Source: Oscillospiraceae bacterium
GTDB taxonomy: Bacteria; Bacillota; Clostridia; Oscillospirales; Oscillospiraceae
Assembly: GCA_902765595.1 (NCBI GenBank)
Contig: CACXAQ010000003.1
Span: 35,349-99,348 of the forward strand
Direction of reading: 5' to 3'
DNA: 64,000 nt
The position numbers and the translations under genes are program-made. The notes below the pieces were generated by a model. The model was not told the DNA's origin and did not search any database. It saw nothing but the letters and a program-made list of their open reading frames with translations. Shown here in pieces: positions 15,505 to 53,108 of this stretch (positions within the stretch are counted from its first letter, which is position 1; each line of letters begins with the position of its first letter).

Positions 15505-15747
15505 CATTTGTGCGCTGTGACGGATAGGAGTACGGGTCTGGCAGATCGCAGAGAGGGGACGGACGGTGCAAGTCCCTGTGATGCAGCCCGGAAGGTCGAT
15601 CCTGAGCGCCCGGGGGGAAGGGAAACTGCGTAGTCCCGGCGTCGGCCCGCGTTAAGGGCATGAAAGTGCCGCCTCAAGGCGGAATTCAGGTGGTACCGCG
15701 GTATTTGATCGCCCTGAGACGAAAGTCTCGGGGCGTTTTCGATTTTT
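15505..15747 (+). ncRNA. T-box riboswitch of valS
   Basis: tRNA-sensing leader that tests charging of tRNA-Val. The T-box sequence AGGTGGTACCGCG is at 15688-15700. The variable base of its TGGT is T, which pairs with discriminator A73, as expected for tRNA-Val. The GGAGTACGGG start of stem I lies near 15525. A GTC at 15595-15597, on the 3' side of stem I, is a plausible valine specifier, but the pairing was not fully modelled. The leader ends with the terminator CGCCCTGAGAC/GTCTCGGGGCG (15710-15735) and a T-rich tail, followed by valS. Confidence 0.92.
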
Positions 15748-41993: not shown

Positions 41994-42001
41994 GCGTTTG
42001 T

Positions 42002-42107
42002 CTTCAGGGCAGGGTGTAATTCCCGACCGGCGGTACAGTCCGCGAGCCTTCGGGCCGATCCGGTGTGATTCCGGAACCGACAGTGACAGTCTGGATGGAA
42101 GAAGACG
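42002..42107 (+). ncRNA. FMN riboswitch (RFN element)
   Basis: The conserved RFN core is clear: CAGGGCAGGGTGTAATTCCC near the 5' end, GACCGGCGGTACAGTCCGCGAGCC, CCGGTGTGATTCCGG, and CAGTGACAGTCTGGATGGAAG at the 3' end. It should reduce expression of the riboflavin transporter gene when FMN is plentiful, through the terminator that follows. Confidence 0.96.
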
Positions 42108-42143
42108 GGAAAATCTGATATTCCTGTCCTCTCTTTATGTCTG

Positions 42144-49484: not shown

Positions 49485-51989
49485 TTACAGGTACTGACCG
49501 GTAACAGATTTTTCGTTTCCTCGTATTTCTTCCGGTGTTCCACAGGCAACGATCCTGCCGCCCTGTTCTCCGCCTCCCGGCCCCATGTCGATCACGTAAT
49601 CCGCATTGCGGATCACATCCAGGTCGTGCTCGATCACGATGACGGTTGCGCCGTTGTCGATCAGGGTCTGAAAAACACGCAGAAGGGTCTGTACATCCAG
49701 CGGATGAAGGCCGATAGTCGGCTCGTCAAAGACGAATACCGAATCTGATTGCAGTCTTCCCATTTCGCTCGCCAGCTTCAGCCGCTGGGCTTCGCCGCCG
49801 GACAGACTGGGAGTTTCTTCACCCAAAGTCAGGTAACCAAGGCCCAGACTTTGCAGCACTTCAAGCCGGCTGCGCACGAGCTTCATATCCCGGCAGAAGT
49901 CCAGAGCTGTGCTGACATCCAGCGCCATCAACTCCGGAAGGGAAAGCGCTTTCCCGTCCTTGTTCAGATGGCGGATCTGCCAGGCCTCCTTCCCATAGCG
50001 GGAGCCTCTGCACTCGGGGCAGGGAATGTCCACGTCCGGCAAAAACTGCACATCCAGACTGACGGAGCCGGTCCCATCGCAGACAGGACAGCGCAGGTCG
50101 CCCGTATTGTAGGAAAAAGAAGAGGCTTTTCGTCCCCGATCCCTGGCGTCAGGTGTCCGCGCGTAGATTTTGCGCAGCTCGTCATGGACATTGGCATAGG
50201 TCGCAACCGTGGAGCGCACGTTGATGCCGATAGGCGTCGCGTCGATCAGCTTCACGTGCTCGATCCCTTCTGCCGTAATCGATTTCACATGCTCCGGGAA
50301 ACGCGTCCCGCCGGTCAGGGCGGAAAGCGCCGGGACCAGGCTTTCCAGGATCAGCGTCGTCTTTCCCGAGCCGGAAACGCCGGTCACGACGGTAAGACGT
50401 CCTTTCGGAAAATCCACCTCCAGGGGCTTTACCGTGTGCAGGGCATATGTGGAAAGGTGGATTGTTCCAAGCGAAAACAGCTTGTCTTTTTGCGCCTGTT
50501 TTCGATAAAGCTGATTTTGCTTCATCAGGAAAGGCCCGATCCGAGAGTCTGGATTCTCCGTGAGCTGGCTCACCGAACCCTCGGCAATGACCTGACCGCC
50601 TGCTGCTCCGGCTCCAGGCCCCATCTCGATGATCCAGTCAGCTTCCTTCAGGATCTGTGTATCGTGATCCACCAGCAGCACCGAGTTGCCGTCTGCGATA
50701 AGATCATGCATTACGCCGGTCAGGCCGACGATATTGGACGGGTGCAGCCCGATGGACGGTTCATCCAGCACGTATAAAACGCCGGTCGTCCGGTTGCGAA
50801 CGGCTCTTGCCAGCTGCATCCGCTGCCGTTCGCCGGTGGACAGGGTCGAGGCAGCCCGGTCAAGGGAGAGGTAGGATAATCCCAGATCCATCAGCCGCTT
50901 TGCGACAAGATGAAAAGAGGCACAGATGCTCTCCGCCATGGGACGCATTTCTTTCGGCAGAGACGCCGGCACGCCCCGGACCCATTCGCAGAGATCGGAC
51001 AGGGGCATTTTACATACCTGATCCAGGGTAAGGCCTCTTATCTGCGGCGCCCTGGCAGCTTCGGAAAGCCGTGTGCCGTGGCAGTCAGGGCAGATCTCCT
51101 CTTTCAGGAACTTCTCCACCCGCTTCATGCCTTTTTCGTCCGTGACCTTGTTCAAGGCGTTCAGAACGGTGGCCGTAGCGCTGTAATAGGTAAAGTCCAT
51201 CTCCCCGGCAGTGGCCGTGTCCGCTTTTTTGGGACGGTAGAAGATGTGCTTTTTGACCATCGGTCCGTGGAGGACGATCTCTTTTTCCTCCGGTGTCAGA
51301 TCTCGATAAGGAACATCGGTCCTGACGCCCATGGCCCGGCAAACGTCGGTCATCAGCGACCACATCAGACTGTTCCACGGTGCGACGGCCCCCTCGTCGA
51401 TCGTCAGGGACACGTCGGGGATCAGACTGTTCTCATCCACCGTGCGGACCGTGCCTGTGCCGCCGCAGCATTTGCAGGCACCCTGGCTGTTGAAGGCAAG
51501 CTCCTCGGCTCCCGGTCCGTAAAAGCGTGCTCCGCATTCCGGGCAAACGATCTCTTTTTCCGCGGCAACGCTCATGGACGGGGGACAGAGATGCCCGTTG
51601 GGACAGCGGTGGCTGGCAAGACGGGAGAACATCAGACGCAGGCTGTTGAGAAGCTCTGTGCCCGTTCCGAAGGTGGAGCGGATCCCGGGTACACCGGGCC
51701 GCTGATGCAGGGCCAGGGCGGCGGGGACATACAAAACCTCGTCCACATCGGCTCTGGCGGCCTGCGTCATGCGCCTGCGCGTGTAGGTGGAAAGAGACTC
51801 CAGATAGCGTCTGGAACCCTCCGCATACAGAACCCCCAGCGCCAGGGAGGATTTTCCCGAGCCGGACACGCCTGCGATCCCGACGATTTGATTCAAGGGT
51901 ATGTCCACGTCCACATTCTTCAGATTGTGTACACGCGCGCCTTTGATCTCTATTCTTTTAGGGATATGATCTGTGAAGTTTCGATCCAT
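49485..51989 (-). CDS. UvrA-like ABC ATPase, class II
   Basis: 834 aa, shorter than canonical UvrA (about 940). Two ABC halves are present: Walker A GVSGSGKSS at 40-48 and GVSGSGKTT later, signatures LSTGERQRMQLARA and LSGGEAQRLKLASEMG, and zinc modules CPECGARF...CKCCGG and CPVCDGTG...CPECRGSR. The N-terminal half appears shorter in the UvrB-binding region, which marks UvrA2. Relatives add resistance to DNA-binding drugs in some hosts. ATG 51989 is chosen; an upstream ATG at 52043 is only a few bases from the predicted transcription start. Confidence 0.88.
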   Translation of the reverse strand: MDRNFTDHIPKRIEIKGARVHNLKNVDVDIPLNQIVGIAGVSGSGKSSLALGVLYAEGSRRYLESLSTYTRRRMTQAARADVDEVLYVPAALALHQRPGVPGIRSTFGTGTELLNSLRLMFSRLASHRCPNGHLCPPSMSVAAEKEIVCPECGARFYGPGAEELAFNSQGACKCCGGTGTVRTVDENSLIPDVSLTIDEGAVAPWNSLMWSLMTDVCRAMGVRTDVPYRDLTPEEKEIVLHGPMVKKHIFYRPKKADTATAGEMDFTYYSATATVLNALNKVTDEKGMKRVEKFLKEEICPDCHGTRLSEAARAPQIRGLTLDQVCKMPLSDLCEWVRGVPASLPKEMRPMAESICASFHLVAKRLMDLGLSYLSLDRAASTLSTGERQRMQLARAVRNRTTGVLYVLDEPSIGLHPSNIVGLTGVMHDLIADGNSVLLVDHDTQILKEADWIIEMGPGAGAAGGQVIAEGSVSQLTENPDSRIGPFLMKQNQLYRKQAQKDKLFSLGTIHLSTYALHTVKPLEVDFPKGRLTVVTGVSGSGKTTLILESLVPALSALTGGTRFPEHVKSITAEGIEHVKLIDATPIGINVRSTVATYANVHDELRKIYARTPDARDRGRKASSFSYNTGDLRCPVCDGTGSVSLDVQFLPDVDIPCPECRGSRYGKEAWQIRHLNKDGKALSLPELMALDVSTALDFCRDMKLVRSRLEVLQSLGLGYLTLGEETPSLSGGEAQRLKLASEMGRLQSDSVFVFDEPTIGLHPLDVQTLLRVFQTLIDNGATVIVIEHDLDVIRNADYVIDMGPGGGEQGGRIVACGTPEEIRGNEKSVTGQYL

Positions 51990-52057
51990 CTTAACTCTGC
52001 CGTCCTGTTTCGAAAAATACCCTTCATCCTGGGGGCGCAGCATGTTATCAAAAAATT

Positions 52058-52086
52058 ATGGTACAAGCCAGAGCGGTTTTTGTCAA
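52058..52086 (-). promoter_or_regulatory. promoter of the uvrA2-like gene
   Basis: Consensus TTGACA and TACCAT, 17 bases apart on the - strand. Confidence 0.65.
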
Positions 52087-52159
52087 GTTCTCCTTGTAAT
52101 CTCACAGAGCCATATCGTGATAACTTCATTGATTTGTGGTATCATTTTTCTTAGCTGCA

Positions 52160-52168
52160 TGTTATAAT
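52160..52168 (+). promoter_or_regulatory. extended -10 promoter before the hairpin element
   Basis: TGTTATAAT, an extended -10 (TGnTATAAT), without a good -35. The predicted start (around 52175) coincides with the first bases of the structured element. Confidence 0.5.
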
Positions 52169-52172
52169 GGTC

Positions 52173-52460
52173 TTGATTTCAAGCGACTGCGCTTGATAAT
52201 GACCATCGGATGGCGAAATCAATCGAGAATTCGATTGATTTCGCTGCCAAACGACAGGTTTGGCAGCGAATGATTCTAAAAATCATTCGCCCGATGCTCA
52301 TTGCAATGAGTATATGGCAAAACAGCCGTGCTGTTTTACCGCGCAGCAAAGCTGCGCGGCGAAAAGCTTTTTTGCTTCGCGGTACACTGGAGATTGCGGC
52401 ATAACCGGGAGGTTTGCCGACGATCTCGCAGACCTCCCGCTGAAAGGCAATTGAAGTCAA
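52173..52460 (+). ncRNA. candidate structured RNA or tandem-palindrome element
   Basis: Back-to-back palindromes with almost no spacer: TCAAGCG/CGCTTGA (52179-52196); CGAAATCAATCGA/TCGATTGATTTCG (52214-52243); CTGCCAAA/TTTGGCAG (52244-52266); CGAATGATT/AATCATTCG (52267-52289); AAAACAGC/GCTGTTTT (52319-52337); CCGCGCAGC/GCTGCGCGG (52339-52359); CGAA-AGC/GCTTCG (52360-52379); CGGGAGGT/ACCTCCCG (52406-52439). AATGACCATCGG (52198-52209) can pair 11 of 12 with CCGATGCTCATT (52291-52302), closing three hairpins in a four-way junction. TTGATTTCAA and TTGAAGTCAA (one G-U) close the whole. No known family was recognised. Confidence 0.5.
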
Positions 52461-52481
52461 CAATGTTCAGGAGGGTAAATA

Positions 52482-53108
52482 ATGAATAAAAATGACTGCA
52501 TCATTCGTTTGGAAAGGACAGAAGACTTTAGAGAAGTCGAGTTTCTTGTCAGAGAATCGTTCTGGAACGTCTATCGCCCGGGCTGCAGCGAGCACTATGT
52601 GATCCATGCGCTGAGGGATGACCCGGCATTCGTGAAAGAACTGGATTTTGTCATGGAAAAGGACGGCAGGCTCATCGGGCAAAACATGTTCAAGCAAACG
52701 GTGATCAATGCCGACGACGGCAGAGACGTCCCTGTTTTGACCATGGGGCCGATCGGGATCACCCCGGAGCTGAAGCGCAAAGGCTACGGAAAGAGACTGC
52801 TGGATCATTCTCTGGAACAGGCTGCCGCATTGGGTTACGGCGCTGTCCTGTTTGAGGGCAATATCGGCTTCTATGGCAAGAGCGGGTTCGACTACGCCAG
52901 AAGATTCGGGATCCGGTATCACGATCTGCCGGAGGGAGCGGACGATTCCTTTTTCCTATGCAGAGAGCTGATCCCCGGCTACCTTGACGGCGTTACCGGC
53001 GTGTATCAAACCCCGCGGGGTTACTACGTGGATGACGCTGAGGTGGAGGAATTCGACAAAGCCTTTCCGTACAAGGAGAAGCTGAGGCTTCCCGGTCAAA
53101 TTTTCTGA
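52482..53108 (+). CDS. GNAT acetyltransferase
   Basis: 208 aa. The GNAT fold is seen in the acceptor-side N-terminus (VRESFWNVYRPGCSEHYV) and the acetyl-CoA loop MGPIGITPELKRKGYGKRLLDHSLEQA, followed by YGAVLFEGNIGFYGKSGFDYA. The C-terminal tail carries YVDDAEVEEFDKAFPYKEK, typical of a clostridial subgroup of unknown substrate. AGGAGGG lies nine bases before the ATG, directly after the hairpin element. Confidence 0.92.
   Translation: MNKNDCIIRLERTEDFREVEFLVRESFWNVYRPGCSEHYVIHALRDDPAFVKELDFVMEKDGRLIGQNMFKQTVINADDGRDVPVLTMGPIGITPELKRKGYGKRLLDHSLEQAAALGYGAVLFEGNIGFYGKSGFDYARRFGIRYHDLPEGADDSFFLCRELIPGYLDGVTGVYQTPRGYYVDDAEVEEFDKAFPYKEKLRLPGQIF

What the first reader, a model, noticed from the sequence alone, without database searches (positions are those of the whole stretch)
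52160..52475. Chain of back-to-back palindromes that folds as a closed structure from a predicted transcription start
The 438-base gap between the uvrA2-like and GNAT genes holds at least seven distinct perfect palindromes of 7-13 bp with almost no bases between them. AATGACCATCGG and CCGATGCTCATT close three hairpins into a junction like a cloverleaf, and TTGATTTCAA with TTGAAGTCAA close the whole 288-base element. An extended -10 box places the transcript start at the first bases, and the element ends just before the GNAT ribosome-binding site. Flanks AATGGTC (52166) and AATGTTC (52462) could be an imperfect target duplication, so a MITE-like element is the main alternative to a structured cis-RNA. 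The palindromes differ from each other, so this is neither a CRISPR nor a simple repeat.
Basis: partly seen in the sequence, partly recalled or inferred. Interest (0 to 1): 0.72.

Follow-up and report, generated by a model that had tools for sequence, protein, structure and literature searches.

The report
Cut mobile repeat in gene leader
The chain of palindromes is a damaged copy of a small mobile DNA repeat found about 40 times in this gut bacterium's genome, and it sits in the control region of an acetyltransferase gene that in many relatives starts with a tiny conserved upstream peptide and a switch-like RNA leader.

Summary
The palindromes are real and fold far better than chance, but the "288-base closed element" is two unrelated things joined. 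(1) 52196-52377 is a 3'-truncated copy (182 of 204 bp) of a MITE-like repeat with about 40 copies here; it is in 18 of 36 sampled congeners and 0 of 23 genomes of other genera. Complete copies have imperfect 22-bp terminal inverted repeats, a 2-bp AT target duplication (one clean site), a palindromic target preference, and a consensus folding as two tandem three-hairpin cloverleafs. Stems covary, yet G.T and A.C mismatches are equally frequent (73:71), which suggests pairing kept at DNA level rather than as one-strand RNA. No autonomous partner was found; IS30-like mobilisation in trans is the best guess. (2) 52378-52481 is the native leader of the GNAT gene. In relatives it holds an ORF, mostly 11 codons (MKxxxTPEIVG-stop), whose end can pair with a following hairpin's loop; the hairpin's 3' arm can pair with its 5' arm or with the GNAT ribosome-binding site. 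It looks like a translation attenuator. In the window the repeat replaced the ORF's start region. Moderate interest: a new repeat family and a leader not found described in limited literature searches.

The parts
52160..52168 (+). extended -10 box TGTTATAAT, likely promoter of the GNAT gene (inferred)
   Evidence: sequence; TGTTATAAT / TGCTATAAT upstream of the leader in relatives L240 / L241; the consensus scan did not list it
52196..52377 (+). 3'-truncated copy of the MITE-like repeat (positions 1-182 of 204); the 22-bp 3' terminal repeat is missing
   Evidence: about 40 places in own genome (41 match blocks, one of them a second piece of the same copy); most complete copies are about 204 bp
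52196..52217 (+). 5' terminal inverted repeat ATAATGACCATCGGATGGCGAA, beginning with the AT target dinucleotide
   Evidence: 79 matches to the terminal pattern (up to 3 mismatches) in own genome, 0 for the reversed control pattern
52197..52303 (+). first cloverleaf unit: closing helix 52198-52209/52291-52302 around hairpins 52213-52244, 52240-52270 and 52266-52290
   Evidence: helices 1-4
52305..52377 (+). second cloverleaf unit, lacking its closing 3' strand and the 3' arm of its last hairpin; hairpins 52316-52340 and 52338-52358 remain
   Evidence: consensus fold of complete copies; helices 5-9
52372..52404 (+). remnant of the leader ORF: TTG CTT CGC GGT ACA CTG GAG ATT GCG GCA TAA; its TTG now lies in repeat-derived sequence and no AGGAG precedes it
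   Evidence: related ORFs are mostly MKxxxTPEIVG-stop
52390..52399 (+). leader segment 1: ORF end (GAGATTGCGG region) that can pair with the loop 52417-52425 of the next hairpin
52405..52438 (+). conserved leader hairpin, arms 52407-52417 / 52428-52438 (GGGAGGTTTGC / GCAGACCTCCC)
   Evidence: 98.1% of cells paired over 36 leaders
52468..52474 (+). GNAT Shine-Dalgarno CAGGAGG, complementary to CCTCC in the 3' arm of the leader hairpin
   Evidence: 179 Watson-Crick and 1 G.T of 180 cells for CCTCC with GGAGG in 36 leaders; folds
52482..53108 (+). GNAT N-acetyltransferase, 208 aa
   Evidence: Pfam PF00583, PF13527, PF13508 over cut-off
49485..52043 (-). UvrA-like ABC ATPase, 852 aa, divergent upstream gene
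   Evidence: below the curated cut-offs of the UvrA equivalog models

Best explanation
52196-52377 is the remnant of a non-autonomous mobile DNA repeat (MITE-like) that inserted upstream of the leader ORF of the GNAT gene and later lost its last 22 bp together with the ORF's start region; a short match (GCTTTTTTG) between the repeat and a related leader makes a deletion there plausible (inferred). SHOWN: dispersed copies, terminal inverted repeats, a 2-bp AT duplication at one cleanly resolved site, palindromic target preference, two tandem cloverleafs in the consensus, stem covariation without strand bias. INFERRED: a DDE transposase encoded elsewhere, most like IS30 in its 2-bp duplication, palindromic targets and 2-bp joints between elements, recognises the ends and pastes the repeat into AT-rich sites, often just upstream of ribosome-binding sites; stems are kept matched by DNA-level processes (template switching between palindrome arms, or a need for folded DNA). 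52378-52481 is the native GNAT leader with four segments: (1) the end of a short ORF, (2) the 5' arm and loop of a hairpin that starts at the ORF's stop codon, (3) its 3' arm CCTCC, (4) the GNAT Shine-Dalgarno. Segments 1:2 and 3:4 can pair together (gene off); a ribosome held on the ORF end would free 2 to pair with 3 and so expose 4 (gene on). The pairings are supported by sequence; the switch itself is INFERRED. In this genome the repeat removed the ORF's own ribosome-binding site, and the remaining leader folds in the off-type form, so control has probably changed or been lost.
For: Copies; 41 match blocks; 18 of 36 congeners, 0 of 23 genomes of other genera at E 1e-6; terminal pattern: own 77 hits, G085 87, G109 92; 0-2 reversed-control hits per genome. 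Ends: (79 vs 0). Duplication: the filled site in L037 against seven loci of six genomes that read GTG, GTT or ATC, then AT, then GG; AT at both ends in 72 of 78 complete copies. Target logo: (90 sites). Covariation: (45 of 84 pairs changed on both sides; shuffles 13.1, slid versions 13-21). No strand bias: (G.T 73, A.C 71 in 79 pairs; RNA control FMN riboswitch 11 and 1). Loop inversions: (CTTTG in 11, CAAAG in 9 of 78). Two elements sharing a 2-bp AT: (L315). IS30 hallmarks: PMC9333248, passages. Leader: 33 of 102 genus genomes, own included; 22 of 197 order genomes, own included; 16 of 111 genera; 31 of 37 ORFs have 11 codons; Glu in 36 of 37; ORF-end:loop helix covaries (24 cells changed on both sides, shuffles 11.5, 0 of 500 reach it) with G.T 37 and A.C 13; with the ORF end masked, the hairpin forms in 36 of 36 folds.
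Against: No autonomous partner: the 8 stronger PF13936 loci and 11 rve or DDE_Tnp_1 loci from 7 repeat-rich genomes show no element ends at 4 mismatches or fewer, except L308, where the two ends belong to a short repeat copy beside a weak rve match. Only one of six filled sites with a relative gives a clean duplication (L037); L060, L150 and L133 fit 2 bp but the relative carries TT, AA or GT; L032 and L168 cannot be resolved. With the RNAalifold structure the ratio is G.T 55 to A.C 37 (56 pairs). The RNA control is small, and in it transversion-type double changes also outnumber transition-type ones (15 and 3 cells), so that measure does not discriminate. Leader: unmasked folds show the off-type form (1:2 with 3:4) in only 10 of 36, 3:4 alone in 3 and the hairpin 2:3 in 23, so the default state is uncertain; CCTCC and GGAGG hardly vary, so covariation cannot test 3:4. 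The genome is a fragmented assembly (84% complete, 61 contigs), so a false join at this repeat cannot be excluded.
Confidence: 0.85

Rival explanations
1. The repeat is a transcribed structured RNA (regulatory 5' leader element or small RNA) whose fold is under selection as RNA and which also happens to be mobile.
For: Strong stem covariation; 33 of 84 complete copies lie within 45 nt of a Shine-Dalgarno plus start codon that points away from them, against 7 of 168 distant flanks and 5 of 168 wrong-strand flanks, so many are probably transcribed; the RNAalifold structure gives G.T 55 to A.C 37.
Against: On the consensus fold G.T and A.C are equally common (73 and 71) and stay so after thinning (46:57, 33:33, 16:20), whereas RNA selection on one strand favours G.U: FMN riboswitch 11 and 1, GNAT leader helices 24:2 and 37:13. 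Loops occur in both orientations.
Confidence: 0.08
2. The repeat moves as single-stranded or folded DNA: a Y1 (IS200/REP-type) transposase or a serine recombinase recognises the cloverleafs or the AT core, rather than a DDE transposase recognising linear ends.
For: The first unit folds as a closed cloverleaf in the window and both do in the consensus; the joined ends form the palindrome TCATTATAATGA, as seen in L315; a 2-bp crossover at AT would look like a 2-bp duplication.
Against: The target preference is palindromic and symmetrical and both ends carry long inverted repeats, as for DDE elements. Neither Y1 transposases nor serine recombinases were searched for.
Confidence: 0.2
3. The junction at 52377/52378 is an assembly artefact: a repeat copy joined to the wrong contig end.
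For: Draft assembly with 61 contigs; several copies sit at contig ends (L010, L025, L044); in the 13 relatives where one search lists both the uvrA stretch and the GNAT stretch, they lie on different contigs; none of the other leaders printed runs into a repeat within the 45 nt shown.
Against: The truncation lies inside the repeat's last hairpin, and the TTG of the repeat continues the leader ORF in frame with the conserved end TLEIAA. The genes before this GNAT gene differ between relatives anyway.
Confidence: 0.1
4. One 288-nt structured cis-RNA closed by TTGATTTCAA/TTGAAGTCAA.
For: Strong overall fold.
Against: The outer helix does not form; the two halves have separate origins: one is dispersed without the other and the other is conserved in relatives without the first.
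Confidence: 0.02

Closest known systems
Bacterial MITEs (review PMC10969869, passages seen; PMC2229807, abstract and outline seen)
   Same: Short, terminal inverted repeats, target duplication, tens of copies, AT-rich targets near genes, very stable predicted fold (that review's legend gives -113.09 for QMITE2; consensus here -115.4 kcal/mol).
   Different: Two tandem three-hairpin cloverleafs; the word cloverleaf has 0 occurrences in the main text of that review. 2-bp AT duplication. No parent element identified.
IS30 family insertion sequences (PMC9333248, passages seen)
   Same: 2-bp direct repeats, nearly palindromic hot spots, insertion next to own inverted repeats through an IR-IR junction.
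   Different: No transposase in the repeat; the 8 stronger IS30-like loci of the genus do not carry these ends; the own genome has only one PF13936 match just over the cut-off, in a 184-aa frame that I did not identify.
REP/REPIN elements with RAYT transposases (search listings only; details recalled)
   Same: Dispersed palindromic repeats; paired palindromic units.
   Different: 204 bp with an AT target duplication and long terminal repeats; Y1 transposases not searched for.
Leader-peptide translation attenuators of erm/cat type (recalled)
   Same: Short ORF, then segments with alternative pairings 1:2/3:4 against 2:3, the last segment holding the ribosome-binding site of the gene.
   Different: Precedes a GNAT of unknown substrate; inducer unknown; translation and stalling not shown.

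Membership tests
MITE | short element without coding capacity, many dispersed copies | tested here: met
   about 204 bp in most complete copies, about 40 places in own genome; coding was not tested formally, but indels in the alignment are not in threes
MITE | terminal inverted repeats | tested here: met
   imperfect 22-bp repeats in complete copies; 79 terminal-pattern hits vs 0 control; the window copy has only the 5' one
MITE | target site duplication | tested here: met
   2-bp AT at L037 against seven loci of six genomes; three other sites consistent, two unresolved
MITE | mobility: sites filled in one species and empty in another | tested here: met
MITE | related autonomous element with the same ends | tested here: not met
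   none among paired ends in held loci or among the transposase loci examined; the search is not exhaustive
IS30-derived element | 2-bp duplication at a palindromic target | tested here: met
   IS30 traits from PMC9333248
IS30-derived element | ends shared with an IS30-family transposase gene | tested here: not met
   8 stronger PF13936 loci of the genus without these ends
known Rfam RNA family | match at or above gathering score | tested here: not met
   no match in 52044-52481; loci L214, L037 and L068 give no match above gathering score at E up to 1
translation attenuator (leader-peptide type) | conserved short ORF just upstream | tested here: met
   of 37 loci, 31 ORFs have 11 codons, 3 have 10, 2 have 12 and 1 has no TTG in range; Glu codon GAG 35, GAA 1, Asp GAC 1; translation itself not shown
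translation attenuator (leader-peptide type) | ORF end pairs alternatively with the following hairpin | tested here: met
   80.2% of cells paired, covariation above all 500 shuffles and all slid versions; G.T 37, A.C 13
translation attenuator (leader-peptide type) | alternative pairing masks the gene's ribosome-binding site | tested here: inconclusive
   CCTCC and GGAGG complementary in 36 of 36 leaders but nearly invariant; with ORF end and 5' arm removed they pair in 32 of 36 folds
translation attenuator (leader-peptide type) | ribosome position on the ORF changes expression | not testable with these tools
   needs reporter and toeprinting experiments

The most novel reading that the evidence does not exclude
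A mobile repeat whose hereditary unit is a folded DNA form: two tandem cloverleafs that the mobilising enzyme or the replication machinery must read as folded single-stranded DNA, with stems continually re-matched by template switching or by selection for folding. It can carry extra multi-hairpin cargo (356-bp version), and here it has broken into a four-segment leader-peptide attenuator of a GNAT gene, scattered through the order, for which the literature searches made here found no description.
Probability: 0.2. Interest if true: 0.7.

Novelty: new variant of a known kind. Interest (0 to 1): 0.5.

Why it matters
Covariation is usually taken as proof of a functional RNA. This repeat has abundant compensatory changes, yet G.T and A.C mismatches are equally common in its stems and loops occur in both orientations, which points to maintenance at the DNA level. 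It could serve as a natural case for template switching as a source of false RNA signal (mechanism argued in PMC8794818, abstract and opening text seen). It also adds a mobile element family that often lands just upstream of ribosome-binding sites, and it exposes a leader ORF with alternative RNA pairings before a GNAT gene, found in 16 of 111 sampled genera of the order, that ordinary reporters can test.

Tried and rejected
Rfam at gathering threshold on the window and at E up to 1 on three related loci: nothing above gathering score in the region. Plasmid and phage collections by distant blastn and viral contigs by an end pattern: no match. Autonomous partner: paired ends 230-6000 bp apart in held loci gave six cases: elements with nested inserts, a duplicated piece, a stretch with N, and two neighbouring ends; PF13936, PF00665 and PF01609 searches gave transposases without these ends. 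Y1 and serine recombinases were not searched. Gene context from longest ORFs was too crude because ORFs run through the repeat; replaced by the Shine-Dalgarno test. The 90 of 90 AT..AT count is biased, because local alignments must end in matches; the less biased figure is 72 of 78. A long-range pairing of the ORF end with the stretch just before the Shine-Dalgarno (seen in some folds) is broken in several relatives and was not adopted. RNAalifold on the 78 complete copies gave fewer pairs (56 pairs, G.T 55, A.C 37); the count 73:71 uses the fold of the consensus, restricted to 79 of 84 pairs that are Watson-Crick in at least 80% of cells. Transversion-type double changes (149 cells against 57) were dropped as an argument for DNA-level upkeep, because the FMN control shows the same excess (15 against 3). 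The FMN control has 31 rows, one of which repeats the own genome. For one search, L230 was left out (insertion in the hairpin loop) and one duplicate removed, leaving 36 of 38 loci, L233 was skipped by the motif, leaving 37 of 38. Literature: nine searches; those aimed at the repeat and at the leader found no description of either, searches were for comparison; subscription papers are mostly not held.

Full report
WHAT IS THERE. The gap between the divergent UvrA-like gene (49485-52043, minus) and the GNAT gene (52482-53108, plus; Pfam PF00583, PF13527 and PF13508) is 438 bases and does hold a chain of palindromes. As single-stranded DNA, 52160-52475 folds at -91.1 kcal/mol against -45.9 (sd 4.1) for shuffles. 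The outer closing pair does not form.

TWO THINGS, NOT ONE. A search of the own genome with 52150-52490 found 52196-52377, or large parts of it, at about 40 places (74-99% identical), while the bases outside it are single-copy apart from a few bases at some matches (41 match blocks, one of them a second piece of the same copy). Conversely, 52384-52481 aligns to the upstream region of the same GNAT gene in relatives that have no repeat there.

THE REPEAT. Complete copies are about 204 bp with imperfect 22-bp terminal inverted repeats, ATAATGAYCATCGGATGGCGAA and TTCGCCATCATATAATCATTAT. The terminal pattern has 79 matches in the own genome with up to 3 mismatches and none for the reversed control. 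The window copy lacks the last 22 bp. Copies occur in 18 of 36 congeners and in none of 23 genomes of other genera of the order (E 1e-6). Over 102 genus genomes the pattern count reaches 87 and 92 in two genomes, with 0-2 control hits per genome; 74 of 102 have at least one match, but single matches are near the control level. No match in the plasmid, phage or viral collections.

INSERTION. Filled and empty sites were compared. The copy in L037 lies inside an ORF; seven loci of six relatives (L068 and L230 are one genome) read straight through with a single AT where the filled site has AT on both sides. L060 and L150 (both in a leader before a gene whose product starts MANIKSS or similar, by its sequence rpsT) and L133 fit a 2-bp duplication, but the relative has TT, AA or GT there; L060 and L150 are compared with the same locus, L189. 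L032 and L168 could not be resolved. AT is present at both ends in 72 of 78 complete copies. Over 90 distinct sites the flanks show a symmetrical preference, T A T T before and A A T A after the AT, in a 59% G+C background. L315 holds two elements sharing a 2-bp AT. The IS30 literature describes 2-bp direct repeats, nearly palindromic hot spots and insertion next to its own inverted repeats (PMC9333248, passages), so IS30-type mobilisation is the closest analogy. It is only an analogy: the eight stronger PF13936 loci in the genus and 11 rve and DDE_Tnp_1 loci in seven repeat-rich genomes carry no such ends of their own, and the own genome has one PF13936 match just over the cut-off in an unidentified 184-aa frame and one below it. 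Of 84 complete copies, 33 have a Shine-Dalgarno and start codon within 45 nt pointing away (22 on the 3' side, 11 on the 5' side), against 7 of 168 distant flanks and 5 of 168 wrong-strand flanks.

STRUCTURE AND HOW IT IS KEPT. The consensus of 78 complete copies folds as two tandem cloverleafs of three hairpins each, -115.4 kcal/mol; one copy folded alone prefers a single seven-hairpin star closed by the terminal repeats at -109.1, so both forms are possible. Of 84 pairs, 45 have a change on both sides (shuffles 13.1, sd 2.1; slid versions 13-21) and 96.8% of cells pair. This would normally be read as RNA selection. But in the 79 pairs that are Watson-Crick in at least 80% of cells, G.T occurs 73 times and A.C 71 times; thinning to 57, 29 or 15 copies leaves 46:57, 33:33 and 16:20. 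On the RNAalifold structure it is 55:37. RNA selection on one strand predicts an excess of G.T: the FMN riboswitch of the same genus shows 11 and 1 (31 rows), and the two testable helices of the GNAT leader show 24:2 and 37:13. Double changes are of transversion type in 29 types and 149 cells and of transition type in 26 types and 57 cells, but the FMN control has the same excess (15 and 3 cells), so I draw nothing from this. Loops occur in both orientations: hairpin 3 has CTTTG in 11 and CAAAG in 9 of 78 copies, the closest such pair being 97.5% identical elsewhere; short loops make some reverse-complement partners likely by chance, hairpin 7 has none, and I made no formal test. The pattern fits palindrome arms templating each other, as argued for RNA genes in PMC8794818 (abstract and opening text). 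A 356-bp version with about 152 bp of further hairpins in the loop of hairpin 3 has copies in L136, L148 and L316-L318, so the repeat tolerates cargo; some of these loci may be the same places under different names.

THE LEADER. A covariance model from 12 leaders finds one leader in each of 33 of 102 genus genomes, own included, and in 22 of 197 genomes of the order, own included, in 16 of 111 genera. In 38 of 39 loci read, the ORF-stop-hairpin motif was found (not in L327), and 36 of those 38 continue into an ATG-started ORF of 207-212 aa that begins like the GNAT protein. Of 37 loci counted, 31 ORFs have 11 codons, 3 have 10, 2 have 12 and 1 has no TTG in range. The Glu codon is GAG in 35, GAA in 1 and GAC (Asp) in 1, and the next-to-last codon uses all four third bases for Val (24), two for Ala (11) and is Glu in 2, which suggests, without a formal test, selection on the peptide. 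The stop codon touches ACCGGGAGG.

PAIRINGS IN THE LEADER. Hairpin arms pair in 98.1% of cells, with 8 both-sided cells against 1.9 in shuffles, although the number of pairs with both-sided changes does not exceed the shuffles (2 against 1.2). The ORF end can instead pair with the hairpin's loop over ten pairs: 80.2% of cells pair, 24 cells and 7 pairs are changed on both sides (shuffles 11.5 and 4.4), and the covariation score exceeds all 500 shuffles and all slid versions. CCTCC and GGAGG are complementary in 36 of 36 leaders but nearly invariant. Predicted folds: hairpin in 23 of 36, ORF-end:loop together with CCTCC:GGAGG in 10 (the window's leader among them), CCTCC:GGAGG alone in 3; with the ORF end masked, hairpin in 36 of 36; with the 5' arm masked too, CCTCC:GGAGG in 32 of 36. 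This is the four-segment logic of translation attenuators (recalled): a ribosome held on the ORF end would switch the gene on. In the earlier folds of 14 longer leaders, hairpin and competing forms were likewise mixed, and L075 did not mask its Shine-Dalgarno even with the 5' arm removed.

THE WINDOW. The repeat ends at 52377; the TTG at 52372 in its last hairpin is in frame with CTT CGC GGT ACA CTG GAG ATT GCG GCA TAA, so the conserved end (TLEIAA) survives but the ORF's AGGAG does not. Related leaders L240 and L241 contain GCTTTTTG and GCTTTTTTG at their ORF start, so a deletion at a short match between repeat and leader is a plausible origin (inference). If the extended -10 at 52160-52168 is used, the repeat is now part of the GNAT 5' leader (inference), and without ORF translation the leader may rest in its off-type fold (inference).

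LIMITS. The organism is known only through an unnamed draft assembly; an assembly error at the junction is possible. Mobility is inferred from filled and empty sites, not observed. The mismatch and covariation tests count cells, not events. Novelty statements rest on the full-text searches of open papers listed in Tried and rejected.

Noticed in passing
L136:6268-6623, L148:166-521, L316:1084-1439: 356-bp version of the repeat carrying about 152 bp of additional hairpins (TTGCTCCCCAATAA..TTATTGGGGAGCAA and others) in the loop of hairpin 3; several copies in one genome, so the enlarged form seems mobile. L062 has a different insert at nearly the same place.
   Followed up: partly
L208:2416-2480, L210 near 2472: Much shorter palindromes (about 55-65 bp) with ATAAT-like starts and a single hairpin (AACGCCGCAAGGCGTT), possibly minimal relatives of one cloverleaf unit.
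   Followed up: no
L036:2451-3661: Two repeat copies in opposite orientation flank a gene whose protein looks (from memory, no family search) like a diacylglycerol-kinase-type lipid kinase; could be chance or a composite arrangement.
   Followed up: no
L060:1501-1706, L150:3539-3741, L201:3272-3470: Repeat copies in a leader before an rpsT-like gene, at the same position in L060 and L150 when compared with L189; L150 and L201 also share flanks, so an old shared insertion is likely.
   Followed up: partly
window 41996-42110 and 15508-15719: FMN riboswitch and T-box leader at gathering threshold, plus five tRNAs; the riboswitch served as RNA control.
   Followed up: partly
L072, L076, L077, L079-L084, L086, L087 upstream of the GNAT gene: GNAT homologues whose printed 210 bases upstream do not show the leader; in L084 a leader lies roughly 260 bp further upstream.
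   Followed up: no
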